A DNA stretch of 64,000 nt, taken from Litoditis marina. Its lineage: Eukaryota; Nematoda; Chromadorea; Rhabditida; Rhabditidae. The translations under genes and the position numbers were made by a program. Below the pieces are notes generated by a model. It was not told where the DNA came from, made no database searches, and saw only the letters and a program-made list of their open reading frames with translations. The stretch covers positions 18,110,257 through 18,174,256 of the forward strand of contig OZ038433.1 of NCBI GenBank assembly GCA_964036275.1. Direction: 5' to 3'. Positions 42,101 through 63,394 of this stretch are shown in pieces; position 1 is the first letter of the stretch, and each line of letters starts with the position of its first letter.

Positions 42101-44465
42101 CGTTGTACAACTGAAATGAAGTTGTGATTATGACACAATTATAATGGAAAGTACAGAAACGTTTGTGACCTACAGACAGCCAGGAGTAATTCCGGAATTT
42201 TAGCTGTGGAGATCATCTTAATCATTCATAGAACACAAGCATCAGCTCCAAGCTCCAATACATATTCCAAACCACCCCAGAAAACATAACTCTTGCTATA
42301 GAAACAAACTTATTGGAACCAAGCTATGCTAACATTTCGCCTCACTGCCAATGAACACATTTACTCTGTTGATTTACCCCAACAGCGAATATCCAAAAAA
42401 ATCCCCTTCATTGATGAACGATGTACCGACTATACAGCAGCAAGGTTGTTCAGATAGTCAGAAAAATTCGCAAAACCGTCTACTTTTTTGCCGAAAAGAT
42501 GAAAATCGGGCTACTTTTTTGAAAAAAATCCTAAATTTTCCCGTGTTTATATCGAAAAACGGATTACTTTTTGTCGCTCAGTCAGACCTTACTGGTGTAT
42601 GGTACCGACCTCTACGCACCGTTTTTTTACGGCTCATAATGAGAACGTGTGTGTTTGTGAAATAAAAACCCCACCTCAATGAACTGCACGGCAACATCGA
42701 ATGTGGGTTCGAGTACCCCCTTCTCCTGTGCCGCCCTTTTGGTGTCCGCCACCATTCGGAATACGTGGGCGATTGCCCGGGGAATCACCCCGACCTGGTC
42801 GTCGCTCATCACCAGACCAGTGTCGAATGAGGTTCCCATCGTGTACGTTTTGCCGGAACCCGTCTGCAAATAAGTAGAGGTTTCTAAATTATAAGGACGA
42901 ATAAATGAATGAATCATTTCATTTATTACTGTCATCATGAGCTGGATTTTCCATATTATTCCTCCATCCTACCTCATGCGGGTATCGAACCAGCGATTGA
43001 AAACTTGAAGAACGTCGTACAAACCTATAGACCATCTAACTAGCCTTTTAGCCGCAATGTCGACAAAGAAAATATACAGAATACAATTCACTGCGATTTT
43101 TATTCAGGATACACACATCTTCCAACTATGATCGTGAGTACAGTTAAATACTGATGAATGGTCCAACAACATACCTGTCCGTATGCGAGAACAGTAGCAT
43201 TGTATCCATCGAAAAGTCCTTCCACCAGTTTTTCGATACATGCCTCATAGATACTCGGCTGGGCACTGGCTTGATCGAACACGTGATCGTACGTGAACGA
43301 ACGATCCCCGCCAATTGTAACCTAAAAACACGTGACGCGTCACATAGAGTGTTCGTCAGCGCTATTAAAGTAGGACGATTACGTGCTCCAATCTCGGCGC
43401 GTCAGTCCTTTAAACTGCAATTGAAAAATGTATTGCAGTTTAAAGGACTGACGCGCCGAGATTGGAGCACGTAATCGTCCTTCTTTAAACGAGTATTTCA
43501 CCTGACTGACGAATGATTAACGAAACTGACCGAATATTTGGTTCATAAATCGACTGTTTTCTGTTTCTCGTTGTTTGTCGATCGGTCTAATCAATTCGAA
43601 CTTATATGAACTAAGCAACGGGCAATGTTATTTTTAAGGTAACTTGGTAGTGAATACTGAACTATGTGTATTCATTCTGATGATGTTTCTATGCAACACA
43701 CTATGATACTATGAACATACCTGTGGTTCATTTGGAATAACCGAAGTACAAACGCGACTTCCCTCTAATTTCTCGCGATTGCCCTGCGGTCTTATTCTGA
43801 AATAGAGTGTTGAGAAGATGACAATCTCAATCATACATGAACTCAACTAAATGCGTACGACTCCAAATTCGTTGTTTGATGAGTTCAGTAGTTCAGTGTA
43901 AGATATACGTCGTCGTATGGTCGTAACATTGTCATTTAGGAATTTCGGACATTTTCGAAAAATGGTACCGTCAACTGACTCCTATGACCTATGAACCATG
44001 GAATCAAGAAACCTTACGCTATAAAACTCGTCTAGACTTGATATCAGAGTTTTGAACCGGTAACTTGAAATACCTATAGAACTGATGTTCTGATTCGTTT
44101 GTATCTTCTGGCCTGCCTTTCCGAAGTATCTTTTCCCTATACGGATTGTTATCATATGCAAATACGGCCTACACCCCTTCAACCCGCAACCCTTCGCGCG
44201 CTCAAAGTAAACAGTTTCAATGGCCAGTTTGAGAGTTTATTTGGCAAGACCCACAAATTAGGAACGTGAAATATAGAAAGCACTATAATAGAACATAAAA
44301 CTTAGTATAAACAAATGTTTTCTGGCAATGATGTTGTCCTCAACAAAGACAGTTCAAGAATGCATTCTGCACTGTTTAGAAGGTCGTGTCGGGGTCACTA
44401 ATAAAATAGACCATAATATGAACATACCTTAGTGCAACCTGCACAGTTGCTGATGCCGCGTCCAT
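3868..44465 (-). CDS. klp-12: Kinesin-4 family motor, KIF21-type (37 coding exons, 1,644 aa)
   Basis: Microtubule-plus-end kinesin-4 of the KIF21A/KIF21B/KLP-12 type; family members restrain microtubule growth, for example in axons. The start codon is at 44465-44463 and the stop TGA at 3870-3868. All exons join in frame with GT/AG junctions to 4,935 nt, close to the roughly 1,640-1,670 aa of vertebrate KIF21 proteins. Order: motor (1-363), coiled-coil stalk with an acidic insert (364-1031), basic and Arg/Glu-rich linker (1032-1295), WD40 propeller (about 1296-1644). The order of blocks and the WD40 spacing match KIF21 rather than other kinesin-4 members, which lack WD40 repeats. Exon coordinates are in the four sub-entries. 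Upstream of the ATG a TTCTTGTAG at about 44488 could be a 5'UTR or trans-splice acceptor. The main uncertainty is the exon 28 donor. The symbol assumes a nematode. Confidence 0.95.
4612..4720. repeat. Short degraded copy of the CGAGTTTT hAT-like element
   Basis: Shares the inner left end (CTGTTAATCGAGTTCAAAA) and right end (CGAGTCGAGTTTCGAG ... GACAACCCTA) with the 569-bp element at 23660-24228, but lacks most of the interior. The left terminal repeat is degenerate and no clean target duplication was found. Its right end lies eight bases from the splice donor of kinesin exon 35. Confidence 0.6.
5561..5705. repeat. Clustered GATCAAACTACAA motif in inverted arrangement
   Basis: In intron 33 several copies of a short motif (GATCAAACTACAA and near variants) lie within 145 bp, with GTGGTGTGGTTT at one side and AACCACAC at the other, suggesting a small foldback element. 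The same motif recurs in other introns and intergenic DNA (19531-19570, 37870, 60061-60130). Confidence 0.45.
7155..7228 (-). pseudogene. Duplicated fragment of kinesin exon 30 and its donor
   Basis: The block resembles 7365-7440, the 3' end of exon 30 plus its intron start, with shared stretches such as CTCTAAAA, CGTACCTTC, ATGACCTGCCCACT and CTGAGGCACTGTTC. It has small deletions and substitutions and lies about 200 bp downstream, inside intron 30. It keeps an exon-like sequence followed by a GTACGG donor but would shift the frame, so it is a non-functional duplicate and a possible decoy splice site. Confidence 0.65.
7881..8840. repeat. 160-bp minisatellite, six copies, rich in CTCATGAG palindromes
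   Basis: GCCGCCAACC recurs at exact 160-bp steps (8041, 8201, 8361, 8521, 8681). Six units lie between about 7881 and 8840 in intron 29. Each unit contains about six CTCATGAG palindromes and an internal TTGTAGCATAGCAATC ... GATTGCTACGCCGCC pairing, so both strands can fold heavily. Copies differ by only a few bases (CTCATGCTAA versus CTCCTGCTAA), implying recent expansion. Confidence 0.95.
10558..10762. repeat. MITE-like element with 27-bp terminal inverted repeats
   Basis: GGGCGACGATTCAGCTAAAA at the left end is matched by its reverse complement TTTTAGCTGAATCGTCGCCC at the right end, about 205 bp apart, with AT-rich DNA between. It lies in intron 27. No coding capacity; superfamily not assigned. 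Confidence 0.6.
12812..12930. repeat. Diverged TTAA-ended palindromic element
   Basis: An imperfect palindrome beginning TTTTAAAGCAGGACGATTA and ending TAATCGTTCTTCTTTAAAG, with centre AACTGCAATTGAAAAATGCA. It is the same family as the better preserved copy at 43365-43488. Located between kinesin exons 25 and 26. Confidence 0.7.
14390..17500 (-). mobile_element. Non-LTR retrotransposon (LINE), RTE-like, apparently full-length coding
   Basis: A single intact endonuclease/reverse transcriptase ORF on the minus strand is followed by a very short 3' UTR and an 8-bp microsatellite tail (ATCTTGAA repeated) ending near 14394. A short 3' UTR with a simple-repeat tail is typical of RTE-clade elements. 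The 5' boundary is not visible; I place it near 17400-17500, and no target duplication was identified. The element lies in intron 24 of the kinesin, in the same orientation as the host gene. Confidence 0.85.
14431..17403 (-). CDS. LINE ORF: APE-type endonuclease plus reverse transcriptase (990 aa)
   Basis: Encodes the enzyme that nicks target DNA and copies the element RNA at the nick. The endonuclease domain (about residues 53-290) shows LNCRGLG with N59, LQETK with E88, YAP at 156-158, GDFNA at 190-194 and the catalytic SDHR at 282-285. The reverse transcriptase domain (about 480-780) shows [42 protein letters not shown] and the catalytic FADD at 723-726, followed by KYLGV. The C-terminal region ([27 protein letters not shown]) resembles RTE-type elements common in nematodes. 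No stop or frameshift interrupts it, so it may be recently active. The true start may be the second methionine at residue 44. Confidence 0.9.
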   Translation of the reverse strand: MWIFGVCFHLLSRAVAFHFALPAICFRPIVDCKLKTQAGTGEAMGPNSLPRAFHLCTLNCRGLGKTSKMQLLQQQLEKINWNFVALQETKRLGTVGETLPNGDVLYHFSLNSTHGTGFLVSSKNSRNVECFCPISSRLSYLDVTMRKRKFRLISAYAPTSAYPDADYNYFLSELNNITANCKDRVPIIAGDFNARLGSRQNQERELGTFAFDSRNDRGRILLDWLQSKHYRSFSSFFKKKEKRTWTWRSPNGTTLSQIDYVFSHANLPVSDVCVLGSFDFDSDHRLLRIVIGLQRKHRIIDKKKTEKYVNRAMFDHGILTSGDPVDEDGSVEEVYNDLIFRIRTAYEVAKCERPLNPFMSDATIDLLKRRRSLQNCRTIRGRLEFTQISKLARFSRKEDVRRRRDAALRNALSRGGGLRKVMQEGSNRRNKIIGLKDENGVVQYHPDQLSSIAKRFYNKLYEDDSQMNPVPSWMEDSTPPFLEKEIRSAIDSLRSGKSPGLDRIPAEAIKWSGSVVLKDITRMFNQILAGDDIPASLMMSRTRLLFKKGEVSEIANYRPITLLNTFYKLLSRCVLNRIEPLLDEQMSEEQCGFRRKYGTSDNIHILRQVIERAREYRMPLFLCFVDLSKAFDRVHHQAIWNTLTTLGIQQPLVDVLRSVYLASKCSIDVNGQDVSIEIRRGVRQGDVISPRLFTTVLDVALRELNWSELGIRVNGKSLSHLLFADDCLLFAPDKDTLKRMIKEFMAACGRVGLEINMAKSEYMTNQNDVSPLQFADVALPPKQSVKYLGVTVNISGNWDPEISRRISSAWFGFNEYRTILKTPSFPMSMKRKIFHAVIMPRLLYGAESWALSNGNKDRLRVVQRKMERAMLNVKLQDRLPCATLRGITGLKDVVLEATKLKFSFCSRISQMNRDRWSLIVTEWRPFDRIRSSGRPVVRWRDELVLAVQSFNRAMRRGRVRPPNVRGEEILRMCRDRDTWMAIKEHHIVTI
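19310..19497. repeat. Foldback of AAGTCATTAA / TTAATGACTT repeats
   Basis: Three to four copies of an AAGTCATTAAAA motif on the left (19316-19360) are mirrored by TTAATGACTTTTACTTT copies on the right (19434-19492), with about 75 bp between. It is a small stem-loop repeat with no ORF. Confidence 0.7.
19531..19570. repeat. Small palindrome of the GATCAAACTACAA family
   Basis: TTGTAGTTTGATCTC and GAGATCAAACTACAA face each other across about ten bases, making a 15-bp stem. It is the clearest inverted pair of a motif seen many times in the window. Confidence 0.7.
20470..20704. mobile_element. Tc1/mariner-type MITE, copy 1
   Basis: The ends are TATAGTTCGTTTCACC and its approximate complement GTGAAACAGACTATA, with TA at both borders as in Tc1/mariner target duplication. 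Sub-terminal CTACAGTAATCT and AATCTTACTGTAGAGG also pair. A second copy with the same ends is at 61738-61973. About 235 bp, non-coding. Confidence 0.7.
21027..26720. other. Kinesin intron 23: mostly unassigned AT-rich DNA
   Basis: About 5.7 kb between exons 24 and 23. Apart from the hAT-like element at 23660-24228 I see no gene, only short unsupported ORFs and scattered simple sequence. Confidence 0.6.
23660..24228. mobile_element. hAT-like non-autonomous element made of CGAGTTTT repeats
   Basis: The terminal inverted repeats start TAGGGTTGTTAA and end TTTAACAACCCTA. They are flanked by an identical 8-bp duplication ATAGCAAT on each side, the signature of hAT superfamily insertion. The 569-bp interior is almost wholly degenerate TTTCGAGTTTTCGAGTTTTGGGAAA units, with a 3' half partly repeating the left half (GAGTCGAGTCGAG blocks near 23930 and 24190). 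Long ORFs in several frames (up to 235 aa) are a by-product of the repeat. Confidence 0.8.
29018..30281 (+). CDS. Nested small membrane protein gene, exons 1-4 (3' end not settled)
   Basis: A spliced plus-strand gene inside intron 22 of the kinesin. Exons: 29018-29098, 29241-29429, 29787-29953, 30167-30281. All have GT donors, CAG acceptors and matching phases, giving 184 residues before a phase-0 donor. The protein starts [13 protein letters not shown], has a polar Arg/Ser-rich N-terminal half (1-90), two hydrophobic helices in exon 3 (about residues 91-111 and 120-142, separated by a short Arg-containing turn) and a polar Ser/Arg tail. It looks like a hairpin membrane protein with both termini on one side. 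I do not recognise the family. TTCTTTTCCAG about 50 bases upstream of the ATG could be a 5' UTR or trans-splice acceptor. Confidence 0.75.
30282..31763. other. Intron of the nested gene with scattered open reading fragments
   Basis: Between about 30918 and 31620 several plus-strand reading fragments of about 60-90 codons follow each other in different frames, separated by single stops. This pattern fits a decayed coding element, but I could not match it to a known family. Confidence 0.3.
31764..31814 (+). other. Candidate terminal exon of the nested gene
   Basis: After AATTCCAG, a phase-0 reading gives 16 codons beginning SMKVVTG and then TGA, which would complete a 200-aa protein. An alternative terminal exon after TTTCAG at 31105-31164 encodes 19 mostly non-polar residues before a stop. 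The first is preferred for its hydrophilic, tail-like composition. Neither is proven. Confidence 0.4.
35082..35253. mobile_element. hAT-type MITE, copy 1 (intron 15)
   Basis: Member of a family of about 170 bp starting CATACACCAG, with internal TTGTCCGAATAGTCAG, GAAAATCGGTCTACTTTTGA and TTGTCGCTTAGTCAGACC. The right end is degraded, yet an 8-bp duplication GCAAAAGA (35074-35081 and 35254-35261) still brackets it. Non-coding. Confidence 0.8.
36115..36234 (-). pseudogene. Two short duplicates of the exon 14 acceptor region
   Basis: The start of exon 14 and its upstream intron (GAAACATAGTCCGAGGTAGC at 36009-36028, then GGAATACACG) is repeated at 36115-36139 (TAGTCAGAGGTGGCTGGAAT, then ACACG) and 36214-36234 (GAAACATAGTCCGAGGTAGC, then T). 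These are spaced about 100 bp apart upstream of the real exon in transcription order. They carry extra acceptor-like AG sites but no extended exon. Confidence 0.6.
36326..36590. repeat. Foldback element built on CGGTCGG motifs
   Basis: AATTGACCAAGACGCGGTCG on the left is mirrored by CGACCGCGTCTTGGTCAATT on the right. Inner blocks GGCACATGTCCAACTGGCGG and AGCTGGCGGTCGGTAA are likewise mirrored. Arms are about 115 bp and the centre about 35 bp. Located in intron 13, GC-rich against an AT-rich background. Confidence 0.85.
38419..38588. mobile_element. hAT-type MITE, copy 2 (intron 11)
   Basis: Same family as 35082-35253. Ends CATACACCAG and GCTGTATG, bracketed by the 8-bp duplication TGTAATTG. 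Non-coding. Confidence 0.85.
41165..41334. mobile_element. hAT-type MITE, copy 3 (intron 6)
   Basis: Same family. Ends CATACACCAGCAAGG and CCTTGCTGTTGTATG, bracketed by the 8-bp duplication GTGGTACG. Non-coding. Confidence 0.88.
41550..41716. mobile_element. hAT-type MITE, copy 4, inserted at a splice acceptor (intron 5)
   Basis: Same family in the opposite orientation. Ends CATACACCAGTAAGG and CTTTACTGTATG, bracketed by the 8-bp duplication TCTGAAAT. On the minus strand that duplication reads ATTTCAGA, the 3' splice site of kinesin exon 6, so the insertion doubled the acceptor. The exon-proximal copy (41542-41549) gives the intact exon. Confidence 0.9.
42431..42601. mobile_element. hAT-type MITE, copy 5 (intron 4)
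   Basis: Same family. Ends TATACAGCAGCAAGG and CCTTACTGGTGTATG, bracketed by the 8-bp duplication GTACCGAC. Non-coding. Confidence 0.88.
42962..43046 (-). repeat. tRNA-derived relic with consensus B box
   Basis: On the minus strand a TAGTTAGATGGTCTATAGG A-box-like start is followed by CGCTGGTTCGATACCCGC, a perfect pol III B box. The acceptor stem is not convincing. A tRNA pseudogene or SINE head in intron 3. Confidence 0.45.
43365..43488. repeat. Near-perfect TTAA-ended palindrome
   Basis: Arms of about 57 bp (TTAAAGTAGGACGATTACGT ... GTCCTTTAAACTGCAAT) are mirrored with almost no mismatch around a ten-base loop. Both ends carry TTAA. This resembles TTAA-flanked palindromic repeats of nematodes (PALTTAA type). 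A diverged relative is at 12812-12930. Confidence 0.85.
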
Positions 44466-45604: not shown

Positions 45605-45610
45605 GTTACA
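45605..45610. repeat. Target site duplication, left copy (GTTACA)
   Basis: Identical to 58427-58432 on the other side of the element. The six-base length fits Polinton/Maverick integration. Confidence 0.85.
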
Positions 45611-46149
45611 AGTAGTGTATGTACCCCCCCTGCGGCGTGTCCCCCAGTTGCGGCGCCTCCTAAATAGAGTCTCCCCCTGCGGAATTGCCCCCAGTTGCGG
45701 AATCTCTATTCTACTCTCTTAGGCTTCCAGGTGCAGGAATGAGGTATCACCCAGGAATGAGGTTTTGAAAGCAATCAAAAAAAAATCAATATTTTTCAAA
45801 AAAAAAAAAATCAAAAAATCAAAAAATACATTTTAGTCATTTTCATCTCATTTTTTCCTTATTTACACCTGCGGGACGAGTCCCCCAGTTGCGACTGCCA
45901 TTCTAAAACACCAGTTTCGAAATTAAGGGGTTCTTCTGATATCTGCATGATATGCTGATCTTGCACAGCAGAATATGCGACCGCGAGTTGGTAGTCCATG
46001 TATTTTGATTATTGCGAAATTTTTCAGGTTTTCGAAATAGGTGTTCGTTATTTCGAGAGTGACCTTGTACTAACCGATTCGCTTATACGAAATAATACGC
46101 TATATAGACGCTTATGGGGTGACATTGAATTGACCAGTCTTGCAATTAC

Positions 46150-46300
46150 GAAAATGCTGAGATAGGATCAAAAGGAGCGTGGCCAAGGCCTGTGATTGGT
46201 CAGTTCATCACCTACGAAACAACCAGGCGAGATTCGAAAATGCTGAGATAGGCATGATCAAAAGGGGCGTGGCCAAGGCCTGTGATTGGTCAATTCAACA
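46150..46300 (+). promoter_or_regulatory. Tandemly duplicated promoter-like block before the Cys-rich ORF
   Basis: The sequence AAAATGCTGAGATAGG ... GCGTGGCCAAGGCCTGTGAT followed by TGGTCA occurs twice, 87 bp apart, ending about 60 bp before the ATG at 46357. Each copy holds a GC-box-like GGCGTGGCC and an inverted CCAAT box (ATTGG). Position and duplication suggest an upstream activating region. This is inference from motifs only. Confidence 0.5.
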
Positions 46301-46356
46301 AGTACCAGGCCAGAAATACGTAAATCGTCATTCAGCACACCTACGTTCATATCAAC

Positions 46357-46956
46357 ATGTCGTCCCTTTTTGACTGTGAATTGAAAATTAAAGCCGTTGT
46401 TCCTTCTTCTACTCGTCTATCTCTTTCCTTTGCCGTGACAATTTCGAAACTATTATCCGATTCAAAGTTTGCCACTGATCCAGTTGATGTGGAAAGAATA
46501 CGCCAGAAGCAATGTTATTTGAGAAAGCATCCTGCAACATGGAACACGACAGCTCTCGAACTTCTTGAAAGATGTGAAATCCCGGCCGATAAACCCGTCT
46601 TTGGGATGGATGATCTCGAAAAAATTGCTGCAAAAATGCCTCGCTATCATATTCAACTATATCACCGTGTTCCTCCCGCCAAAGTCTATTCATTGAAATG
46701 GGAAAGTAATACTACTGCCCCCAAAAAGATGTTCATTGCCTGTTTTAACGGTCACTTCGATGTATTCACACCCAATAGGACTACTATTGGAAAAACATTG
46801 TGCAAAGACTGCTACAAAACGTATTTGAGAGCGGATCGTCACAAGTGTACACCCATGTGTATTCACTGCCGTCGCAAGGGATGCACTGAAACTTGCGTTC
46901 GGAAGGTCGACTGTCCGAACTGTAACGAGAATTTCTACATACAAAGATGCTATTGA
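46357..46956 (+). CDS. Cys-rich 199-aa protein, resembles N-terminal zinc region of Polinton-type PolB
   Basis: A complete ORF starting ATGTCGTCC and ending TGA, with a duplicated promoter-like block upstream. Residues about 1-135 are mixed alpha/beta-like without known motif. Residues about 148-199 form a dense Cys/His cluster: CKDC, HKC, CIHC, then two single Cys, CPNC and a final Cys. The order CxxC - HxC - CxxC - CPxCxxxFxxxxC resembles the zinc-binding segment ahead of the exonuclease domain in protein-primed type B polymerases of Polintons and adintoviruses. The ORF stops just after it, so exonuclease and polymerase domains are absent. It may be a truncated polymerase or a stand-alone finger protein. 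The family match is from memory of the pattern, not a search. Confidence 0.6.
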   Translation: MSSLFDCELKIKAVVPSSTRLSLSFAVTISKLLSDSKFATDPVDVERIRQKQCYLRKHPATWNTTALELLERCEIPADKPVFGMDDLEKIAAKMPRYHIQLYHRVPPAKVYSLKWESNTTAPKKMFIACFNGHFDVFTPNRTTIGKTLCKDCYKTYLRADRHKCTPMCIHCRRKGCTETCVRKVDCPNCNENFYIQRCY

Positions 46957-47254
46957 AGTAATATTATAGTTTGTAATAAATATTTCACCTCTATTCTGTT
47001 TTTGATACATAAGCAAAAATATGATTACGCTTGATGGAACTAATATCTCGGCCAGAAAAAAACGATGTTCCATTCAATCATCGAGTTCCACCAGCCTTGG
47101 TGAAAACTCCCGTTGTTCTATTTTCACGAGCACACATCAATAACCATTGCACAATTTGAATTGTCGAGTAAGGTAGCTTTAACGAAATTTCAACTCAGAA
47201 ATGGGATGTCTACACCACAAAAAATACAAAATCATATAAATTTAATATCAACAC

Positions 47255-47297
47255 TAAACCATTCGGGAACGGAGAGGTCACGCGAAGTGCCCTTGTA
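47255..47297. repeat. Palindrome-arm box 1 (GGAGAGGTCAC...AGTGCCC)
   Basis: CATTCGGGAACGGAGAGGTC continuing ACGCGAAGTGCCC. Related boxes are at 48440-48480 and 50945-50985 (same strand) and 51772-51815 (opposite strand), with mirror copies in the right arm at 56741-56783, 55558-55598, 53053-53093 and 52223-52266. Conservation is limited to about 40 bp around GGTCAC and AGTG/GGTGA. The function is unknown. Confidence 0.7.
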
Positions 47298-47559
47298 GAA
47301 TACGTTTTAACACTATTTCGCCAATTGAGTCAGAACCATGAAGAACGTTCGGAAACCTCAAGCTAATTTTTTGATTTAGCCTTCTCGACTAAGATTCAGA
47401 CATGAGAGTGTACGTGAGTAGGAACGTAAATAAGCAGACATGACATTCACAAATCACACCGGAACGCGACGCATCTAGTGTCGTCGGCCAAGAAAAAAAC
47501 CACTTGTGCTATTGAATGAGCTCCTACGTGTTCAATATTTCGAGAACTTTTATCCACTT

Positions 47560-47693
47560 CATAGTGTTCCAAAATTATGTTTTTCTTTATGGTCATCCAG
47601 GTATCTCTGCACATCCTTAATACCACTTTACCTTGGACATTGGGGAAACTGCCACGACCTCTTTTCGTTGTACGGGTGAAAGTTACACGGCTT
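47560..47693 (-). mobile_element. LINE 3'-end fragment inside the left arm
   Basis: On the minus strand it encodes a stretch similar to the last 40 residues of the LINE at 14431-17403 (PNVQGK, LRMCRDTWM versus [17 protein letters not shown]). The DNA also aligns (TTCTTTATGGTCATCCA versus TTCCTTTATGGCCATCCA). It lacks the rest of the element and is clearly diverged. The mirror copy is at about 56345-56478. Confidence 0.75.
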
Positions 47694-48570
47694 AAGAAAC
47701 ATTCATTAAGAAACATTCTTTTGCGACTTTTTGCGTCATAGAGCTTGTGAAAGCGAAGCAGATACCATTAAGACTTGTGGTTTGCATGTGTTTTAGGTGC
47801 AAAATGTGTTAGACTTTATTTTTGAAGTGGAAATCACCTTCGAAAAGCCGTTTGCCATTAAAAAATACGTGCTTTTTCATGAATGTGTCTAGATTTTATC
47901 CTCAGTACCGCTTCAAAAAATCCCGGTCAAGTGAGTTCACTCTGAAAGAGTTTGAAATGCCTAGAAACTCATTGTTGATTTGAATTCAAAAACAACATTC
48001 AAAAATGTGCCCTGAATTCGATGAGAGAAACACTCTAAAATTCAGTAAAATACACTTAACGGGATAACAACAGAAGACCTTGAAGCCAGGTATGAACAAA
48101 GTGTGAAACAACTCAGTTTATTGTACATCACTTTACGGGTTTTTTTGAATATGTATTGTGACTGGTTACATATTTTCAGGAAAATCATCGAAATCGGCTC
48201 TAGATATCCAAGTACATGCCTATGAAGAATCTCTATGACCCTCTAATCTCTTTATACTCTCTTGCTCTGCAAAATATCTCTCTAGCAGAAATTTTATGAA
48301 AAACCCACCACTAGGATTGAGTTCCGCATAATTACGAAGCGTAATGAAGACATACTGATCTTAACACGCCTAAAATTTAATAGTTTTCATAGAAAATACG
48401 CAAAACTTACCAACGCTCATTTTCAATTTACAACACACAAACGTTCGGTAACAGAGCGGTCACAACAAGTGATATCGTAGTGTCCGTTTTTCATTCATTC
48501 TCTTTTACTGCTCAAACTATCAATCACAGTTTTTTTCAATTGCCCAGAAAACAAGCCATATCTAGAATAT

Positions 48571-49017
48571 TTATTTGGAATAGTATACATAAGTTACAAA
48601 TTTGGTATCAAAATTAGTATTCTTCTCAGATGAAGTAGCATCAATTTCAGTTCTTTTTATTTTGTCAGGAAGATCAACCAGCACGATTACTTCTTTTCTT
48701 TCCGGTGAAGTAGCAATCGTTGGAGCATTGACATAGTTTTCCGTCTTCAAAATTTTAGTGTTCACGATACTAGAGGAGTCAGCATGTATACGTTTGAGAT
48801 AAGAAGGGTGGTTATTAAAGCGAGTGATAAAGTCTTTGGGAGAGAGATCCAATGTAGGAACTTCTATTCCGGAATGATGTGTGTTTATGTGGGATAGTCT
48901 TCTCTGTTTGGATGAGAAAAACTTGTCACATATGGTACAATAAGTAGAACAGAGAGAATGCATAACCGACCGCTCACAACAGAATAGGATATTTAAATGA
49001 TCAATCGACTCTGACAA
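48571..49017 (-). CDS. 148-aa protein with one C2H2-type zinc finger
   Basis: ORF of 148 codons. Residues about 27-48 form a finger of the pattern C-x2-C-x12-H-x3-H (CTICDKFF then SHINTHH). The rest is polar with no known domain. It starts close to Cys residues at 13-14, and the real start could be the internal methionine near residue 19. In the left arm it points outward, toward the Cys-rich ORF. Zinc-finger ORFs of unknown role occur in large DNA transposons and viruses. No family could be named. Confidence 0.5.
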   Translation of the reverse strand: MSESIDHLNILFCCERSVMHSLCSTYCTICDKFFSSKQRRLSHINTHHSGIEVPTLDLSPKDFITRFNNHPSYLKRIHADSSSIVNTKILKTENYVNAPTIATSPERKEVIVLVDLPDKIKRTEIDATSSEKNTNFDTKFVTYVYYSK

Positions 49018-49139
49018 GTTGTATTGATGTATTATTTAAACTGCGTTCAACTTCATCACATGAACTCCGATCTAAGCACGAAACCATTCAAAACTGTATC
49101 ATCTCATTTCAAAAACGTGCCAACGCATGCCTAAAAAAC

Positions 49140-50680
49140 TCAAATTACAGAGTCAAAATGCATTTTCCTACAGCTATCCACCACTTTTAATAGGTCATAA
49201 TACACTTTTATAGAGTAGATCGCTATAATTGGTTTATGCCGCGCCTATTGTGGTCAATGCAATGTGTGAGGTAAAAATATTTCCTCCACGGAAGAGTGCT
49301 TCTCCGTACACATAATTTTGAATGCAAGTTTTGAATGAAATGACTTTGAAAGATGTATAAATTAGTGTATATACAAAAAATCTCCACTCCGATATTCCTA
49401 ATAATAGTACGAATCGCACATTTCTGTATGAATATCGTGCAAGTGTACGCTCTAAAAATTTACTTCCCAATAGTCAAAATTCACATTCCCAAAGCTATTG
49501 AGCACTTTCCCAAAGCTATCGAGCACTTTCTCAAAGCTATCGAACACTTTGAGAAGGCCATAATACACTCTCATATCCCAAAAATTCATTATAATTCGTT
49601 TCTCTCGCCCCATATAAGGACATTTTCGATGTGGAATTCCGTGAATATAAAAGTGATATTAGTTTCATATACCCATATTTCGCCATAATTCCTCCTTTTA
49701 CCTACATACTTAGGCAATTTGTATGTGTAAGGCCATTAAATACGGTTGAAAAGTCATAATATATGCGTCGTAGACTGAAAATTTTCCTATAGATCATTTC
49801 GTTCACAACGTTTTGGGCATTTTTAATGCGTCAGGTACTCGTTTTTTTCAAAAGTATTAGTAAAAACCTGGAATTTCCCTGTATTTTTTCAAACAGTGTG
49901 TAGATACCGGGACGGAAAGCATATTCTAGGAAGTGAAATCTGTATCAAAACAGCTACTGGACTTCCACGATCTTCTGATCAGTCGCAGACTTGTCTGACA
50001 ATCTACTTTAACATAAACGCTCAGTAGATAGAGCATTTTTGATGTGTAATTCCATGAAGTATTTCTCAAAAAAAGTGATATTATTTCTTTGTACACCATT
50101 AATTTGCTATACGTCGTTCTTTCGGCAGTCATATATGGGCACACTTGTATGTGTGAGGCCCTTGAATACGGTTGAAAAGTCATTATACACTGTCGTAATT
50201 CACTATAATTAATGTAGTTTGCACCAGGTATAGGCATTTTCATTGTAGAATGCACTCATTTTCCGAAAATATCAGTAAAAAACCCTGGAATTTCATGTTT
50301 TCTTCCAAACCGTGTGTAATTACCGAGCCAGAAAGCATTTTTCTAGATTCTCCCCTTTCGAATAGTAGAGTCATAAATTAGTCTAAATGTACACAAAAAC
50401 TGTCCATCTCTACTCGGTCTTCCTAATATTATTACGAGTCGCGCATTTTTCAGTAAATATCGTGCAAATGCATGCCCTAAAAATGAAAATTTACTGCCCT
50501 GTAGGCAAAGTGCACTTTGCCAAAGCTATTGAGCACTTTCCCAAAGCCATCGAGCACTTTCCCAAAAGCTGTCGAGCACTTTCAGAAGCCATAATTCATT
50601 CTCATATTCCATAAATCCGTCATAATTCGTTTCTCTCGCCCCCTATAAGGACATTTTCGATGTGTAAGTCCATAGTATTT
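49140..50680. repeat. Degenerate repeat zone of the left arm
   Basis: Five diverged copies (near 49190, 49555, 49743, 50160 and 50585) of a block with the theme CATAATNCACT ... ATTATAATT-GTTT ... ATAGGCATTTT-GATGTG. Two of them are preceded by 3-4 tandem copies of a 21-bp unit (CAAAGCTATCGAGCACTTTC) at 49489-49560 and 50505-50585. ORFs of about 75-111 codons here are repeats of each other, and I do not accept them as genes. The mirror zone is 53358-54898. Confidence 0.65.
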
Positions 50681-51971
50681 CTCTAGTGTCATCGCCAAAA
50701 CTTAGGTAATAGTCTTTTTTCAAGAAACACAGCAGAGAAAAGATGATGATACATCGGCTCGAAAGTATGATTTGATGACATTCCTTGAGAGTGTCTTAAG
50801 CTACTTTGAAAACTCAAAAAATAGGAAAATTATATTTGCAAGCCAAGCATGCTTGTGGCTTGTCAGGCTTTCAAGAAAGAAAAAAGTCAACTTTTCAGGC
50901 ACAATTCTTTACTTTATTAATGCAAACGTTACTTCCATCACCAAACTACCGGAGTGGAGAGGTCACAACAGGTGATCTCGTAATGTAAGGTTCTTCTTCT
51001 TATTGACAGAGATGTATGTTTCTCCGGTATGGTTTTGAAGAATGGAGCCAAGAATTCGGATATTTTTCATTGGTATTCAAGAACGAGCATCTCGTAAATA
51101 CTTCAGAGATACCCCAGTATTAATCGACTATTTAGGTTCATATGTTTTCAAGCACTAGAAAGTCAGTCACATTTCCGTAGATTTGAAAATTGCTTCGCTA
51201 TTCTATAATAGATTGTAGTCTTCCAGGTGTAAAAATCCTCTACGACACACGTTCAAGTCGTTTTTCTGTATAAAATTTTCTCTCTAAAGTATCATACAGT
51301 TGGTCTTTCGCCAAAGAAATCCTGAAATCGATCAATCAACGAAGAGAGGAATTCAACTTATCTTGATTCTCTGTAGAGCATTCTATCTCAAAATATCATT
51401 ATTCAGTTGATCTTGTATCAAAAAAGTATGAAATTAATGAGCGGGAAGATGAATGACACTTCATAGCCATTAGTGGTATACCTGCCTCCACAAATTTCAA
51501 GGAAGTCCATGAAAATATAATACAAATACAAGAAAAATGCACTTTCCGTAAGTGAAAATGTACAAATTACTGATATTCACTAGGAATCCACCATAATACT
51601 CACTTTTCATACCTAATTAATGGAAATCACTCCCGAAAGTTTAGATATTTCACATAAGTATTTCGCTCCCTCTCTACTGATTCGTATTCAAGTTTTAATC
51701 TACCTGTCTGGTCTAACCCTTTTCTATTTGTCTGTTTTGAGACTTTTATGCATTGAAAAGAAACGTACACTCGAGGGCACTAGGCGTGACCTCTCCGTTT
51801 CCGAATGGGTTGGTGTTGAAAGTAGGGAGTGTTATTGATGCTTAATACATTTTTAAATGCATTTTACCTTTTTTGTCTTATATCTACTTTTGTCTTATAT
51901 CTACTGTCTTATATCTGTCTTATATCTATTTCCTCTTTTTTATCTTTTTTGTCTTTTATTCACTTCGTATT

Positions 51972-52067
51972 CTCCTTGTATTTCCTCTCTGGAATCAGAA
52001 ATTACAGTTTCGATATATGTTCTTTTTTCTGAAGTATTGCGAAAGAGTTATAGTGAATTTCGAGCAA
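51972..52067. other. Unique 96-bp spacer at the palindrome centre
   Basis: The only part of the element not duplicated. It is AT-rich, without ORF or evident hairpin. It would be the loop if the arms paired. Confidence 0.85.
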
Positions 52068-55021
52068 AATACGAAGTGAATAAAAGACAAAAAAGATAAA
52101 AAAGAGGAAATAGATATAAGACAGATATAAGACAGTAGATATAAGACAAAAGTAGATATAAGACAAAAAAGGTAAAATGCATTTAAAAATGTATTAAGCA
52201 TCAATAACACTCCCTACTTTCAACACCAACCCATTCGGAAACGGAGAGGTCACGCCTAGTGCCCTCGAGTGTACGTTTCTTTTCAATGCATAAAAGTCTC
52301 AAAACAGACAAATAGAAAAGGGTTAGACCAGACAGGTAGATTAAAACTTGAATACGAATCAGTAGAGAGGGAGCGAAATACTTATGTGAAATATCTAAAC
52401 TTTCGGGAGTGATTTCCATTAATTAGGTATGAAAAGTGAGTATTATGGTGGATTCCTAGTGAATATCAGTAATTTGTACATTTTCACTTACGGAAAGTGC
52501 ATTTTTCTTGTATTTGTATTATATTTTCATGGACTTCCTTGAAATTTGTGGAGGCAGGTATACCACTAATGGCTATGAAGTGTCATTCATCTTCCCGCTC
52601 ATTAATTTCATACTTTTTTGATACAAGATCAACTGAATAATGATATTTTGAGATAGAATGCTCTACAGAGAATCAAGATAAGTTGAATTCCTCTCTTCGT
52701 TGATTGATCGATTTCAGGATTTCTTTGGCGAAAGACCAACTGTATGATACTTTAGAGAGAAAATTTTATACAGAAAAACGACTTGAACGTGTGTCGTAGA
52801 GGATTTTTACACCTGGAAGACTACAATCTATTATAGAATAGCGAAGCAATTTTCAAATCTACGGAAATGTGACTGACTTTCTAGTGCTTGAAAACATATG
52901 AACCTAAATAGTCGATTAATACTGGGGTATCTCTGAAGTATTTACGAGATGCTCGTTCTTGAATACCAATGAAAAATATCCGAATTCTTGGCTCCATTCT
53001 TCAAAACCATACCGGAGAAACATACATCTCTGTCAATAAGAAGAAGAACCTTACATTACGAGATCACCTGTTGTGACCTCTCCACTCCGGTAGTTTGGTG
53101 ATGGAAGTAACGTTTGCATTAATAAAGTAAAGAATTGTGCCTGAAAAGTTGACTTTTTTCTTTCTTGAAAGCCTGACAAGCCACAAGCATGCTTGGCTTG
53201 CAAATATAATTTTCCTATTTTTTGAGTTTTCAAAGTAGCTTAAGACACTCTCAAGGAATGTCATCAAATCATACTTTCGAGCCGATGTATCATCATCTTT
53301 TCTCTGCTGTGTTTCTTGAAAAAAGACTATTACCTAAGTTTTGGCGATGACACTAGAGAAATACTATGGACTTACACATCGAAAATGTCCTTATAGGGGG
53401 CGAGAGAAACGAATTATGACGGATTTATGGAATATGAGAATGAATTATGGCTTCTGAAAGTGCTCGACAGCTTTTGGGAAAGTGCTCGATGGCTTTGGGA
53501 AAGTGCTCAATAGCTTTGGCAAAGTGCACTTTGCCTACAGGGCAGTAAATTTTCATTTTTAGGGCATGCATTTGCACGATATTTACTGAAAAATGCGCGA
53601 CTCGTAATAATATTAGGAAGACCGAGTAGAGATGGACAGTTTTTGTGTACATTTAGACTAATTTATGACTCTACTATTCGAAAGGGGAGAATCTAGAAAA
53701 ATGCTTTCTGGCTCGGTAATTACACACGGTTTGGAAGAAAACATGAAATTCCAGGGTTTTTTACTGATATTTTCGGAAAATGAGTGCATTCTACAATGAA
53801 AATGCCTATACCTGGTGCAAACTACATTAATTATAGTGAATTACGACAGTGTATAATGACTTTTCAACCGTATTCAAGGGCCTCACACATACAAGTGTGC
53901 CCATATATGACTGCCGAAAGAACGACGTATAGCAAATTAATGGTGTACAAAGAAATAATATCACTTTTTTTGAGAAATACTTCATGGAATTACACATCAA
54001 AAATGCTCTATCTACTGAGCGTTTATGTTAAAGTAGATTGTCAGACAAGTCTGCGACTGATCAGAAGATCGTGGAAGTCCAGTAGCTGTTTTGATACAGA
54101 TTTCACTTCCTAGAATATGCTTTCCGTCCCGGTATCTACACACTGTTTGAAAAAATACAGGGAAATTCCAGGTTTTTACTAATACTTTTGAAAAAAACGA
54201 GTACCTGACGCATTAAAAATGCCCAAAACGTTGTGAACGAAATGATCTATAGGAAAATTTTCAGTCTACGACGCATATATTATGACTTTTCAACCGTATT
54301 TAATGGCCTTACACATACAAATTGCCTAAGTATGTAGGTAAAAGGAGGAATTATGGCGAAATATGGGTATATGAAACTAATATCACTTTTATATTCACGG
54401 AATTCCACATCGAAAATGTCCTTATATGGGGCGAGAGAAACGAATTATAATGAATTTTTGGGATATGAGAGTGTATTATGGCCTTCTCAAAGTGTTCGAT
54501 AGCTTTGAGAAAGTGCTCGATAGCTTTGGGAAAGTGCTCAATAGCTTTGGGAATGTGAATTTTGACTATTGGGAAGTAAATTTTTAGAGCGTACACTTGC
54601 ACGATATTCATACAGAAATGTGCGATTCGTACTATTATTAGGAATATCGGAGTGGAGATTTTTTGTATATACACTAATTTATACATCTTTCAAAGTCATT
54701 TCATTCAAAACTTGCATTCAAAATTATGTGTACGGAGAAGCACTCTTCCGTGGAGGAAATATTTTTACCTCACACATTGCATTGACCACAATAGGCGCGG
54801 CATAAACCAATTATAGCGATCTACTCTATAAAAGTGTATTATGACCTATTAAAAGTGGTGGATAGCTGTAGGAAAATGCATTTTGACTCTGTAATTTGAG
54901 TTTTTTAGGCATGCGTTGGCACGTTTTTGAAATGAGATGATACAGTTTTGAATGGTTTCGTGCTTAGATCGGAGTTCATGTGATGAAGTTGAACGCAGTT
55001 TAAATAATACATCAATACAAC

Positions 55022-55468
55022 TTGTCAGAGTCGATTGATCATTTAAATATCCTATTCTGTTGTGAGCGGTCGGTTATGCATTCTCTCTGTTCTACTTATT
55101 GTACCATATGTGACAAGTTTTTCTCATCCAAACAGAGAAGACTATCCCACATAAACACACATCATTCCGGAATAGAAGTTCCTACATTGGATCTCTCTCC
55201 CAAAGACTTTATCACTCGCTTTAATAACCACCCTTCTTATCTCAAACGTATACATGCTGACTCCTCTAGTATCGTGAACACTAAAATTTTGAAGACGGAA
55301 AACTATGTCAATGCTCCAACGATTGCTACTTCACCGGAAAGAAAAGAAGTAATCGTGCTGGTTGATCTTCCTGACAAAATAAAAAGAACTGAAATTGATG
55401 CTACTTCATCTGAGAAGAATACTAATTTTGATACCAAATTTGTAACTTATGTATACTATTCCAAATAA
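55022..55468 (+). CDS. Second copy of the 148-aa C2H2-finger protein
   Basis: Mirror of 48571-49017 in the right arm, with identical translation. Same comments. Confidence 0.5.
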   Translation: MSESIDHLNILFCCERSVMHSLCSTYCTICDKFFSSKQRRLSHINTHHSGIEVPTLDLSPKDFITRFNNHPSYLKRIHADSSSIVNTKILKTENYVNAPTIATSPERKEVIVLVDLPDKIKRTEIDATSSEKNTNFDTKFVTYVYYSK

Positions 55469-56344
55469 ATATTCTAGATATGGCTTGTTTTCTGGGCAAT
55501 TGAAAAAAACTGTGATTGATAGTTTGAGCAGTAAAAGAGAATGAATGAAAAACGGACACTACGATATCACTTGTTGTGACCGCTCTGTTACCGAACGTTT
55601 GTGTGTTGTAAATTGAAAATGAGCGTTGGTAAGTTTTGCGTATTTTCTATGAAAACTATTAAATTTTAGGCGTGTTAAGATCAGTATGTCTTCATTACGC
55701 TTCGTAATTATGCGGAACTCAATCCTAGTGGTGGGTTTTTCATAAAATTTCTGCTAGAGAGATATTTTGCAGAGCAAGAGAGTATAAAGAGATTAGAGGG
55801 TCATAGAGATTCTTCATAGGCATGTACTTGGATATCTAGAGCCGATTTCGATGATTTTCCTGAAAATATGTAACCAGTCACAATACATATTCAAAAAAAC
55901 CCGTAAAGTGATGTACAATAAACTGAGTTGTTTCACACTTTGTTCATACCTGGCTTCAAGGTCTTCTGTTGTTATCCCGTTAAGTGTATTTTACTGAATT
56001 TTAGAGTGTTTCTCTCATCGAATTCAGGGCACATTTTTGAATGTTGTTTTTGAATTCAAATCAACAATGAGTTTCTAGGCATTTCAAACTCTTTCAGAGT
56101 GAACTCACTTGACCGGGATTTTTTGAAGCGGTACTGAGGATAAAATCTAGACACATTCATGAAAAAGCACGTATTTTTTAATGGCAAACGGCTTTTCGAA
56201 GGTGATTTCCACTTCAAAAATAAAGTCTAACACATTTTGCACCTAAAACACATGCAAACCACAAGTCTTAATGGTATCTGCTTCGCTTTCACAAGCTCTA
56301 TGACGCAAAAGTCGCAAAAGAATGTTTCTTAATGAATGTTTCTT

Positions 56345-56478
56345 AAGCCGTGTAATTTTCACCCGTACAACGAAAAGAGGTCGTGGCAGTTTCCCCAATG
56401 TCCAAGGTAAAGTGGTATTAAGGATGTGCAGAGATACCTGGATGACCATAAAGAAAAACATAATTTTGGAACACTATG
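56345..56478 (+). mobile_element. LINE 3'-end fragment inside the right arm
   Basis: Mirror of 47560-47693, so the LINE fragment entered before the arm was duplicated. Confidence 0.75.
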
Positions 56479-57080
56479 AAGTGGATGAAAGTTCTCGAAA
56501 TATTGAACACGTAGGAGCTCATTCAATAGCACAAGTGGTTTTTTTCTTGGCCGACGACACTAGATGCGTCGCGTTCCGGTGTGCTTTGTGAATGTCATGT
56601 CTGTTTATTTACGTTCCTACTCACGTACACTCTCATGTCTGAATCTTAGTCGAGAAGGCTAAATCAAAAAATTTGCTTGAGGTTTCCGAACTTTCTTCAT
56701 GGTTCTGACTCAATTGGCGAAATAGTGTTAAAACGTATTCTACAAGGGCACTTCGCGTGACCTCTCCGTTCCCGAATGGTTTAGTGTTGATATTAAATTT
56801 ATATGATTTTGTATTTTTGTGGTGTAGACATCCCATTTCTGAGTTGAAATTTCGTTAAAGCTATCTTACTCGACAATTCAAATTGTGCAATGGTTATTGA
56901 TGTGTGCTCGTGAAAATAGAACAACGGGAGTTTTCACCAAGGCTGGTGGAACTCGATGATTGAATGGAACATCGTTTTTTTCTGGCCGAGATATTAGTTC
57001 CATCAAGCGTAATCATATTTTTGCTTATGTATCAAAAACAGAATAGAGGTGAAATATTTATTACAAACTATAATATTACT

Positions 57081-57680
57081 TCAATAGCATCTTTGTATGT
57101 AGAAATTCTCGTTACAGTTCGGACAGTCGACCTTCCGAACGCAAGTTTCAGTGCATCCTTTGCGACGGCAGTGAATACACATGGGTGTACACTTGTGACG
57201 ATCCGCTCTCAAATACGTTTTGTAGCAGTCTTTGCACAATGTTTTTCCAATAGTAGTCCTATTGGGTGTGAATACATCGAAGTGACCGTTAAAACAGGCA
57301 ATGAACATCTTTTTGGGGGCAGTAGTATTACTTTCCCATTTCAATGAATAGACTTTGGCGGGAGGAACACGGTGATATAGTTGAATATGATAGCGAGGCA
57401 TTTTTGCAGCAATTTTTTCGAGATCATCCATCCCAAAGACGGGTTTATCGGCCGGGATTTCACATCTTTCAAGAAGTTCGAGAGCTGTCGTGTTCCATGT
57501 TGCAGGATGCTTTCTCAAATAACATTGCTTCTGGCGTATTCTTTCCACATCAACTGGATCAGTGGCAAACTTTGAATCGGATAATAGTTTCGAAATTGTC
57601 ACGGCAAAGGAAAGAGATAGACGAGTGGAAGAAGGAACAACGGCTTTAATTTTCAATTCACAGTCAAAAAGGGACGACAT
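57081..57680 (-). CDS. Second copy of the Cys-rich 199-aa protein
   Basis: Mirror of 46357-46956 in the right arm, with identical translation. Both copies are open, so either could be expressed, and both read inward from the element ends. The same reservations on identity apply. Confidence 0.6.
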   Translation of the reverse strand: MSSLFDCELKIKAVVPSSTRLSLSFAVTISKLLSDSKFATDPVDVERIRQKQCYLRKHPATWNTTALELLERCEIPADKPVFGMDDLEKIAAKMPRYHIQLYHRVPPAKVYSLKWESNTTAPKKMFIACFNGHFDVFTPNRTTIGKTLCKDCYKTYLRADRHKCTPMCIHCRRKGCTETCVRKVDCPNCNENFYIQRCY

Positions 57681-57736
57681 GTTGATATGAACGTAGGTGT
57701 GCTGAATGACGATTTACGTATTTCTGGCCTGGTACT

Positions 57737-57888
57737 TGTTGAATTGACCAATCACAGGCCTTGGCCACGCCCCTTTTGATCATGCCTATCTCAGCATTTT
57801 CGAATCTCGCCTGGTTGTTTCGTAGGTGATGAACTGACCAATCACAGGCCTTGGCCACGCTCCTTTTGATCCTATCTCAGCATTTTCG
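57737..57888 (-). promoter_or_regulatory. Mirror copy of the duplicated promoter-like block
   Basis: Right-arm copy of 46150-46300, placed before the minus-strand Cys-rich ORF at 57081-57680. Confidence 0.5.
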
Positions 57889-58426
57889 TAATTGCAAGAC
57901 TGGTCAATTCAATGTCACCCCATAAGCGTCTATATAGCGTATTATTTCGTATAAGCGAATCGGTTAGTACAAGGTCACTCTCGAAATAACGAACACCTAT
58001 TTCGAAAACCTGAAAAATTTCGCAATAATCAAAATACATGGACTACCAACTCGCGGTCGCATATTCTGCTGTGCAAGATCAGCATATCATGCAGATATCA
58101 GAAGAACCCCTTAATTTCGAAACTGGTGTTTTAGAATGGCAGTCGCAACTGGGGGACTCGTCCCGCAGGTGTAAATAAGGAAAAAATGAGATGAAAATGA
58201 CTAAAATGTATTTTTTGATTTTTTGATTTTTTTTTTTTTGAAAAATATTGATTTTTTTTTGATTGCTTTCAAAACCTCATTCCTGGGTGATACCTCATTC
58301 CTGCACCTGGAAGCCTAAGAGAGTAGAATAGAGATTCCGCAACTGGGGGCAATTCCGCAGGGGGAGACTCTATTTAGGAGGCGCCGCAACTGGGGGACAC
58401 GCCGCAGGGGGGGTACATACACTACT

Positions 58427-58432
58427 GTTACA
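58427..58432. repeat. Target site duplication, right copy (GTTACA)
   Basis: Identical to 45605-45610. Confidence 0.85.
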
Positions 58433-61973: not shown

Positions 61974-62504
61974 ACTGTCCTCTCCTACTTTGTAGTTGGG
62001 GTTCATGGTCAAATGCAAAGTCAAATTCCAATGTTGTACAATGTCCCCACCCGTTTAAGACCTGGCCACGATCTGCATTGAAACCTGTCTGCCCATGGCA
62101 AGCCCAAAAGTTGCCCATGACTTGACGACAAAATTTTTTTGGCAGTGCCCGGTACATGCCATGGGCACCCCTGCCCGAAAGCTGCCAGAAAACTGCCAGA
62201 AAGTCACTGGCCTGCCCAGAACACTTTTTTATCATAATATTATTGAAAACTAATTCAAAACAACAAGAACATAATATTTATGATCGCAAAAGACACTGAG
62301 AATGGCAAAACATCAATAGGCTGAACAAAAAGCTCAGAATTCTGTCATAAACACAACTTGAATTACCAAAATGCATTATACGGCGATTACCAGAATTAAT
62401 ATCTGTATAAAAACTGAAAACATACATAAAATCACAATAGAATTGATTGCTCACGTTCACTTACAACATCTCAGACAAAAAACACTATGAAAAACATGAA
62501 CATA

Positions 62505-62974
62505 CCCTTTCCCTCGAACCAGCTCTCTCTCCCTCTATCTGGAACCAACCCCCCCCCCCCCCCCCCTCTATCTCCCTCTACCTCGACCCAGCTCTCTCTC
62601 TCTCTCTCTCTCTACCTGGAACCAACCCCCTCTCTCTCTCTCTCCCTCTACCTCGACCCAGCTCTCTCTCCCTCTACCTCGACCCAGCTCTCTCTCTCTC
62701 TCTCTCTCTCTACCTGGAACCAACCCCCCCCTCTCTATCTCCCTCTACCTCGACCCAGCTCTCTCTCTCTACCTGGAGCCAACCCCCCCCCCCCCTCTCT
62801 CCCTCTACCTCGACCCAGCTCTCTCTCTCTCTCTCTACCTGGAACCAACCCCCCTCTCTCTCTCCTCTACCTCGACCCAGCTCTCTCTCTCTCTCTCTAC
62901 CTGGAAACCAACCCCCCCCCCCTTCTCTATCTCCCTCTACCTCGACCCAGCTCTCTCTCCCTCTACCTCGACCC

Positions 62975-63012
<38 letters not shown>

Positions 63013-63335: not shown

Positions 63336-63394
<59 letters not shown>

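What the first reader, a model, noticed from the sequence alone, without database searches (positions are those of the whole stretch)
45611..58426. A 12.8-kb near-perfect palindrome that is a complete, integrated Polinton-like unit
Both ends of the inverted repeat coincide exactly with AGT...ACT termini and a 6-bp target duplication. The whole palindrome therefore went in as one linear molecule rather than arising by duplication after insertion. Ordinary Polintons have terminal inverted repeats of a few hundred bases around a 15-20 kb gene set. Here the repeat is the entire element apart from 96 bp. This looks like an integrated snap-back or defective genome of a protein-primed replicating element: one half copied onto itself, then used as an integrase substrate. 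I know of no standard description of such a form.
Basis: partly seen in the sequence, partly recalled or inferred. Interest (0 to 1): 0.92.

Follow-up and report, generated by a model that had tools for sequence, protein, structure and literature searches.

The report
Palindromic transposon family from Polintons
A 12.8-kb stretch that reads the same on both strands is a mobile DNA element of the virus-like Polinton kind that seems to have copied one of its ends back on itself, and the same genome holds many such palindromic copies, so what looks like an accident has become a lasting form of the element.

Summary
Window 45611-58426 is an inverted repeat with arms of 6,361/6,359 bp, 11 differences and a 96-bp centre. 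It ends in AGTAGTG...CACTACT and is flanked by GTTACA twice.

It is not a one-off. Eleven palindromes of this family, counting this one, have both termini and perfect 6-bp target duplications. Ten of them show a homologous off-symmetric centre; the eleventh was not read there. Arms differ by roughly 21-35% between distant copies, yet the two arms of one copy match closely (0 differences in 6,736 and 7,201 bp in two copies). One copy carries an unrelated 1.23-kb transposon at the mirror site of both arms, identical, so one arm was copied from the other.

A second Polinton group has palindromes made from the opposite, integrase end. Three copies switch strand at three different points relative to a closely similar non-palindromic element.

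Best reading: fold-back (snap-back) copying in protein-primed replication, before integration, giving non-autonomous elements. The window copy lacks polymerase core, integrase and capsid matches, so it is no complete Polinton. Linear plasmids offer precedents.

The parts
45605..45610 (+). left copy of 6-bp target duplication GTTACA
45611..51971 (+). left arm of the palindrome (6,361 bp)
51972..52067 (.). 96-bp non-palindromic centre (loop); the 240 bp around it are 100% identical in copies C76 and C16:38.5 Mb and homologous in the other copies where the centre was examined
52068..58426 (-). right arm of the palindrome (6,359 bp)
58427..58432 (+). right copy of 6-bp target duplication GTTACA
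45611..45700 (+). terminus shared with non-palindromic Polintons of the same genome (79-89% over 90-96 bp at five of six of their ends; the sixth, C27 right, in a longer 66% match, 100% over its first 64 bp)
58337..58426 (-). mirror of the shared terminus
46324..46956 (+). ORF1, 210 codons stop to stop: N-terminal part of Polinton DNA polymerase B (80% identical to codons 1-210 of a 1172-codon polymerase); OTU-protease-like fold plus Cys-rich tail; polymerase core absent
57081..57713 (-). mirror copy of ORF1
48068..48145 (+). remnant of the polymerase C-terminus (codons 1146-1171, 65%)
48571..49035 (-). ORF2, 154 codons, C2H2-zinc-finger-like (below the Pfam cut-offs), also present in the non-palindromic Polintons (50-52%)
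55004..55468 (+). mirror copy of ORF2
49482..49550 (+). 21-bp tandem repeat, resembling repeats after the ATPase-like gene of the non-palindromic Polintons (second block 50512-50583; mirrors 54489-54557 and 53456-53527 by symmetry)
46410..47728 (+). only tract where the two arms differ (9 substitutions, 2 indels); at 5 of the 11 sites both states occur in other copies
56311..57627 (-). mirror of the difference tract

Best explanation
The window element is a non-autonomous member of a palindromic transposon family derived from Polintons (Mavericks). Step 1 (inferred; supported by comparison in a sister group): during replication of the linear, protein-primed extrachromosomal form, a growing strand that carries one terminus plus a stretch inwards folds back and copies itself out to that same terminus, so the other half of the genome is lost and both ends become the same end. 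Step 2 (shown by target duplications): the palindrome is inserted as one linear molecule with a 6-bp duplication; as it lacks polymerase core and integrase, these must come in trans from intact relatives with the same termini (inferred). Step 3 (arm-to-arm copying shown, mechanism inferred): on later rounds a strand that has passed the inherited centre folds back on it and copies its own first arm, so new insertions start with near-identical arms while the centre is inherited. After insertion the arms drift apart like LTRs (seen in one copy, C31).
For: (1) 14 palindromes with both termini and perfect 6-bp duplications (11 of the window family, 3 of a second group) among 24 terminus pairs examined, of which 19 have the duplication. 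(2) A shared off-symmetric centre in 10 of the 11 window-family copies (the eleventh not read there), so this family is inherited as a palindrome. (3) Zero arm differences in C1:16.1 (6,736 bp) and C4:12.46 (7,201 bp), although C1 arms are only about 65-79% identical to the window arms in the main aligned stretches. (4) A 1.23-kb TIR transposon with relatives elsewhere sits at the mirror site in both arms of C4:12.46, identical over 1,231 bp. (5) In C31, 38 arm substitutions are spread over the 4.25 kb compared; 16 are private to one arm and 21 to the other, judged against the window. (6) Second group: three palindromes follow a non-palindromic C18 element, then switch to its inverted copy at three different places; one switch lies in a 16-bp inverted near-match (15 of 16), one shares CGA (5 of 6). 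(7) Such termini occur on non-palindromic elements with integrase, ATPase-like and 1172-codon polymerase genes.
Against: No extrachromosomal or hairpin molecule was seen. No non-palindromic parent was found for the window family, so its first fold-back rests on analogy. The three switch points of the second group could also be one fold-back followed by separate deletions of the centre. The third switch point has no overlap: the matches abut with one base between. In C16:18.59, 1 of 4 arm differences in 888 bp is an allele seen in the C18 element while the other arm has that of C16:3.0 and C2:16.31; C16:38.5, C16:27.1 and the window tract 46410-47728 mix arm types, so recombination or joining of two molecules also occurs. 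The inner arms of the window, C76 and C16:38.5 are nearly identical between copies, as are those of C4:12.46 and C16:27.1, so conversion cannot be excluded there.
Confidence: 0.65

Rival explanations
1. Palindromes are born by tail-to-tail end joining of two broken linear genomes, not by fold-back copying of one strand.
For: One switch point without overlap; one of four arm differences in C16:18.59 is an allele shared with another element; short microhomology also fits end joining.
Against: C16:3.0 arms differ at 3 of 6,964 sites while elements of this group differ by about 0.2-0.6%; two window-family copies have no arm difference at all, and a later transposon insertion appears in both arms of one of them with the centre kept.
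Confidence: 0.22
2. Arms are kept identical after insertion by gene conversion inside the chromosome, as in Y-chromosome palindromes (recalled comparison).
For: Near-identical inner arms in many copies; clustered arm differences in the window.
Against: C31 arms differ by 38 spread, mostly one-arm-private substitutions; C16:38.5 arms differ at 74 sites in the outer 3.8 kb; conversion does not explain how a palindrome flanked by a target duplication was made.
Confidence: 0.13
3. These are ordinary long-repeat Polintons that lost a large centre.
For: Termini and 6-bp duplications are those of Polintons.
Against: Relatives have inverted repeats of about 160-340 bp; C18:1.85 shows no mirror match in the 1.5 kb tested; second-group palindromes run colinear with C18 and then switch strand.
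Confidence: 0.04
4. Assembly artefact (fold-back reads).
For: The assembly has 522 contigs and several copies lie on small ones (C76, C31, C294); C216 shows a palindrome with inverted flanks.
Against: Target duplications at many chromosomal sites and unique flanks at the window; arms that differ within a copy; fold-back reads would also mirror the flanks.
Confidence: 0.03

Closest known systems
Polinton/Maverick transposons
   Same: AG...CT-type termini (recalled criterion), 6-bp target duplications, polymerase N-terminal fragment, C2H2-like gene and repeats shared with non-palindromic Polintons of the same genome
   Different: Whole element is one inverted repeat; no match for polymerase core, integrase, ATPase or capsid in the window copy
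Hairpin/palindromic derivatives of protein-primed linear plasmids (K. lactis hairpin plasmid, Kikuchi et al. 1985; kalilo deletion derivative, Vierula & Bertrand 1992; only reference entries seen; details recalled)
   Same: One end kept and copied onto itself, hairpin and duplex palindrome forms of a protein-primed replicon
   Different: Free plasmids, not integrated, no integrase or target duplication, not known to me to found a transposon family
Snap-back defective genomes of viruses (AAV snapback particles PMC8235507, search listing only; adenovirus symmetric recombinants, recalled)
   Same: Self-complementary defective genomes made during replication
   Different: Not known to me as an integrated, diversified multi-copy family; AAV replicates in another way
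Fold-back / long-TIR transposons such as FB and Galileo (recalled)
   Same: Very long inverted repeats
   Different: Other transposase superfamilies; no protein-primed replication

Membership tests
Polinton/Maverick | 6-bp target-site duplication | tested here: met
   GTTACA in the window; 19 of 24 terminus pairs examined in the genome
Polinton/Maverick | terminal inverted repeats beginning AG | tested here: met
   AGTAGTGTATG at both ends, shared with Polintons of the same genome
Polinton/Maverick | protein-primed DNA polymerase B | tested here: not met
   only codons 1-210 and a 26-residue remnant in the arm
Polinton/Maverick | retroviral-type integrase | tested here: not met
   no match in the arm; present in relatives
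Polinton/Maverick | packaging ATPase and capsid genes | tested here: not met
   no match in the arm; ATPase-like and capsid-like genes in relatives, Pfam matches below cut-off
snap-back genome of a protein-primed replicon | single terminus duplicated, inverted repeat reaches the terminus exactly, short centre | tested here: met
snap-back genome of a protein-primed replicon | fold-back junction relative to an intact parent | tested here: inconclusive
   no parent found for the window family; strand switches against a non-palindromic relative in three second-group copies
snap-back genome of a protein-primed replicon | hairpin molecule exists in cells | not testable with these tools
   sequence only
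chromosomal (Y-type) palindrome | arms include ordinary chromosomal DNA without target duplication | tested here: not met
   arms end on transposon termini with a target duplication
FB/Galileo-type fold-back transposons | their own transposase superfamily | not tested
   considered from memory only

The most novel reading that the evidence does not exclude
Polintons in this genome repeatedly throw off self-complementary hairpin genomes which are themselves integrated. One such hairpin, from the polymerase end, became a long-lived satellite transposon that replicates by folding back on an inherited loop, so that new copies rebuild one arm from the other, and that lives off intact Polintons.
Probability: 0.42. 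Interest if true: 0.85.

Novelty: new variant of a known kind. Interest (0 to 1): 0.76.

Why it matters
That Polintons replicate outside the chromosome by protein priming is, to my knowledge, largely inferred from their genes. Integrated palindromes with strand-switch junctions would be a fossil record of that stage, with many insertions to study in one genome. They also show what looks like a defective replicon turned into a lasting transposon family, a route to satellites parallel to defective interfering genomes, and arms that may date insertions as LTRs do.

Tried and rejected
Stand-alone terminal protein: ORF1 is the N-terminal piece of pPolB, and in other Polintons the N-terminal domain is the primer protein (PMC11071308, passages). 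The alignment with six pPolBs places ORF1 on the following OTU-like domain and Cys-rich region instead. A moderate model (mean pLDDT 62) matches OTU proteases best (E 0.004, none of 160 matches below 0.001). Rejected.

Selection on the ORFs: ORF1 dN/dS is 0.22-0.32 against the three non-palindromic relatives, but 0.13-1.36 on few changes among seven palindromic copies. ORF2 exceeds 1 in 9 of 15 pairs of six copies. Frames with a stop or shift, and second arms of a copy, were left out beforehand. No claim made; C1:16.1 has a degraded ORF1 and yet has identical arms.

Relatives in viral contigs: one scan with the polymerase, 10 pattern hits, none confirmed. Homologue search on residues 1-215: none at E 0.001, although the whole-protein search had found six. 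An empty site elsewhere in the genome: none. C216 and C301 were not counted since their flanks are inverted, not duplicated. C27, C106 and C16:26.80 have no matching duplication. Independence of the three second-group switch points, which I first took as three events, is not proven: separate deletions of one ancestral centre would do too.
Full report
What is there. Window 45611-58426 (G000:C4:18155867-18168682) is a palindrome of 12,816 bp. Arms 45611-51971 and 52068-58426 differ by nine substitutions and two single-base indels, and 96 bp in the centre do not pair. Both ends read AGTAGTGTATG and the element lies between two copies of GTTACA. The joined flanks find only themselves in the genome. 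The arm differences all lie within 1.3 kb (P about 1e-6), and at 5 of the 11 sites both states occur in other copies.

What it encodes. Each arm has a 210-codon ORF that is 80% identical to codons 1-210 of a 1172-codon DNA polymerase B (PF03175, E 2e-43) in a non-palindromic element on C16. It also has a remnant of that polymerase's C-terminus, a 154-codon C2H2-like gene also found in that element, and 21-bp repeats resembling those after its ATPase-like gene. No other polymerase sequence, and no match to the integrase, ATPase-like or capsid-like proteins of the relatives, was found in the arm. ORF1 corresponds to the OTU-like domain of pPolB, not to the terminal-protein domain. The element looks like a deletion derivative of the polymerase end of a Polinton.

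A family. A terminus motif search gives 60 places, with none for the reversed-motif control. I examined 24 inverted terminus pairs, chosen from the hits, and 19 have a perfect 6-bp duplication: 7 of 8, 8 of 10, 1 of 1 and 3 of 5. Of the 19, 11 are palindromes of the window family: the window, C76, C16:38.5, C4:12.46, C1:16.1, C2:3.86, C4:51.7, C18:96k, C17:8.58, C4:15.3 and C3:22.39. Three are palindromes of a second group, three are not palindromic (C16:23.68, C16:21.81, C18:1.85), one is a 1.08-kb mini-element, and one (C16:24.36) was not tested. The depth of testing varies. Complete arms were aligned for five copies (window, C76, C16:38.5, C4:12.46, C1). For C2:3.86, C4:51.7 and C18:96k the evidence is 100-bp ends, 1 kb at the centre and symmetric hit coordinates (C2:3.86 is 107 bp off centre). 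C17 and C4:15.3 are 26-28 kb end to end and evidently carry insertions in an arm. C3:22.39 was tested over mirrored 1.5-kb pieces and its centre was not read. Further copies lack one end or lie at contig ends (C16:27.1, C2:24.3, C31, C294, C4:34.75).

One origin, concerted arms. The asymmetric centre is 100% identical in C76 and C16:38.5, 86-92% identical in ten other places, and recognisable in C1. In a tree of inner arm sequence with both arms of 13 copies, the arms of 7 copies pair with each other (C294, C1, C31, C2:3.86, C18, C4:51.7, C4:15.3), some at modest support. Five copies fall in two nearly identical groups that hold several copies (window, C76 and C16:38.5; C4:12.46 and C16:27.1), and C4:34.75 is unresolved. 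Arm differences are 0 in 6,736 bp (C1) and 0 in 7,201 bp (C4:12.46), 1 substitution and 4 indels in C76, 38 substitutions and 30 gap letters in 4.26 kb of C31, and 74 substitutions in the outer 3.8 kb of C16:38.5 with none further in until the edge of the centre. C31 lacks its left end, so its target duplication is unknown.

Arm-to-arm copying. C4:12.46 carries a 1.23-kb element with about 38-bp inverted repeats; its three best relatives elsewhere are 93-95% identical. It sits at the mirror position in both arms, 1,231 of 1,231 bp identical, and the arms of the other fetched copies that cover that position run across it without the insert. Two independent hits on mirror positions are not credible, so one arm was copied from the other, before or after this insertion.

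A second, independent case. Integrase DNA of the C16 element finds 14 places at 83% or more, itself included, and a group near 70% in which integrase occurs in inverted pairs 10-12 kb apart at three places. C16:3001230-3018735 has arms of 6,964 bp with 3 differences, duplication ATGAAG, integrase, ATPase-like and further genes in both arms, a 3.58-kb centre with capsid-like and C2H2-like genes, and no polymerase match (the capsid-like frame has no Pfam match of its own). C18:1849186-1869782 is a non-palindromic relative: mirrored 1.5-kb pieces do not match, and its end is 99% identical to the palindrome arm. Against C18, the palindromes run colinear at 99.4-99.8% (C2:16.31 at 97.9-99.5% with repeats over its last 1.3 kb) and then jump to the inverted copy at three different pairs of positions. 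The C16:18.59 jump lies in a 16-bp inverted near-match (15 of 16), the C16:3.0 jump shares CGA (5 of 6), and at the C2:16.31 jump the matches abut with one base between. None of the three can come from another by one simple deletion, since the copy with the longer forward part has the shorter inverted part, but separate deletions of one longer ancestor would also fit. At the least, palindromes arose twice, from opposite ends of Polintons, and before integration.

Mechanism. Shown: insertion as a unit, inheritance of one centre in the window family, arm-to-arm copying, arm drift in C31, formation from both ends. Inferred: that copying happens by fold-back of a strand during protein-primed strand displacement, that a hairpin is the intermediate, and that intact Polintons supply polymerase and integrase. 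Results against a pure fold-back picture are the mixed arms of C16:38.5, C16:27.1 and the window tract, one shared allele in C16:18.59, and one junction without overlap.

Known or new. Hairpin or palindromic derivatives of protein-primed linear plasmids are known: Kikuchi 1985 and Vierula & Bertrand 1992, seen only as reference entries in PMC4443254 and PMC11071308 (passages). AAV snapback genomes were seen in a listing (PMC8235507). Passages of PMC6431247 and PMC8504770 describe Polintons of 15-25 or 15-30 kb and mention no palindromic ones. Searches showed, by title and start of abstract, no paper on palindromic Polintons among the rows listed (20 of 44, 15 of 15, 5 of 5, none, 14 of 14, 10 of 36, 12 of 17, 15 of 22). 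Passages of two further papers (PMC12368964, PMC5182062) did not describe any. A nematode Polinton paper (PMC10748475) is not held, so absence from print is not shown. TTAGGC arrays suggest a nematode host (link recalled).

Noticed in passing
G000:C216:69847-83876 and C301:2204-14020: Second-group termini flanked by inverted, not duplicated, host sequence (GAAGGGTTTAGG / CCTAAACCCTTC); C216 is palindromic in mirrored 1.5-kb pieces, C301 showed no mirror match.
   Followed up: partly
G000:C16:18592827-18610941 and C2:16310193-16328930: Two second-group palindromes on different contigs have the same target duplication TACGTG.
   Followed up: no
L018 (G000:C27:14770-15526): A Polinton terminus is followed directly by an inverted copy (99%) of the polymerase start region, without target duplication.
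   Followed up: no
G000:C4:40487128-40488211: 1.08-kb mini-element with the same termini and duplication GGCATT, arms about 300 bp at 91%.
   Followed up: no
G000:C16:26802017-26804154: 2.1-kb pair of termini whose flanks are inverted copies of each other.
   Followed up: no
window 1-2689 and 7883-8843: Tandem arrays of 188-bp and 160-bp units.
   Followed up: no
window 14431-17424 (-): 997-codon ORF of non-LTR retrotransposon type with endonuclease and reverse transcriptase domains.
   Followed up: no
window 40720-41220 (-): Kinesin motor domain fragment.
   Followed up: no
window 35082-35247, 38418-38592, 41164-41334, 41550-41712, 42432-42604: Interspersed repeat of about 165 bp in five copies, both orientations.
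   Followed up: no
window 62430-63566 (+): Long repetitive open frames (378, 374 and 299 codons in overlapping frames), no Pfam match for the longest.
   Followed up: no
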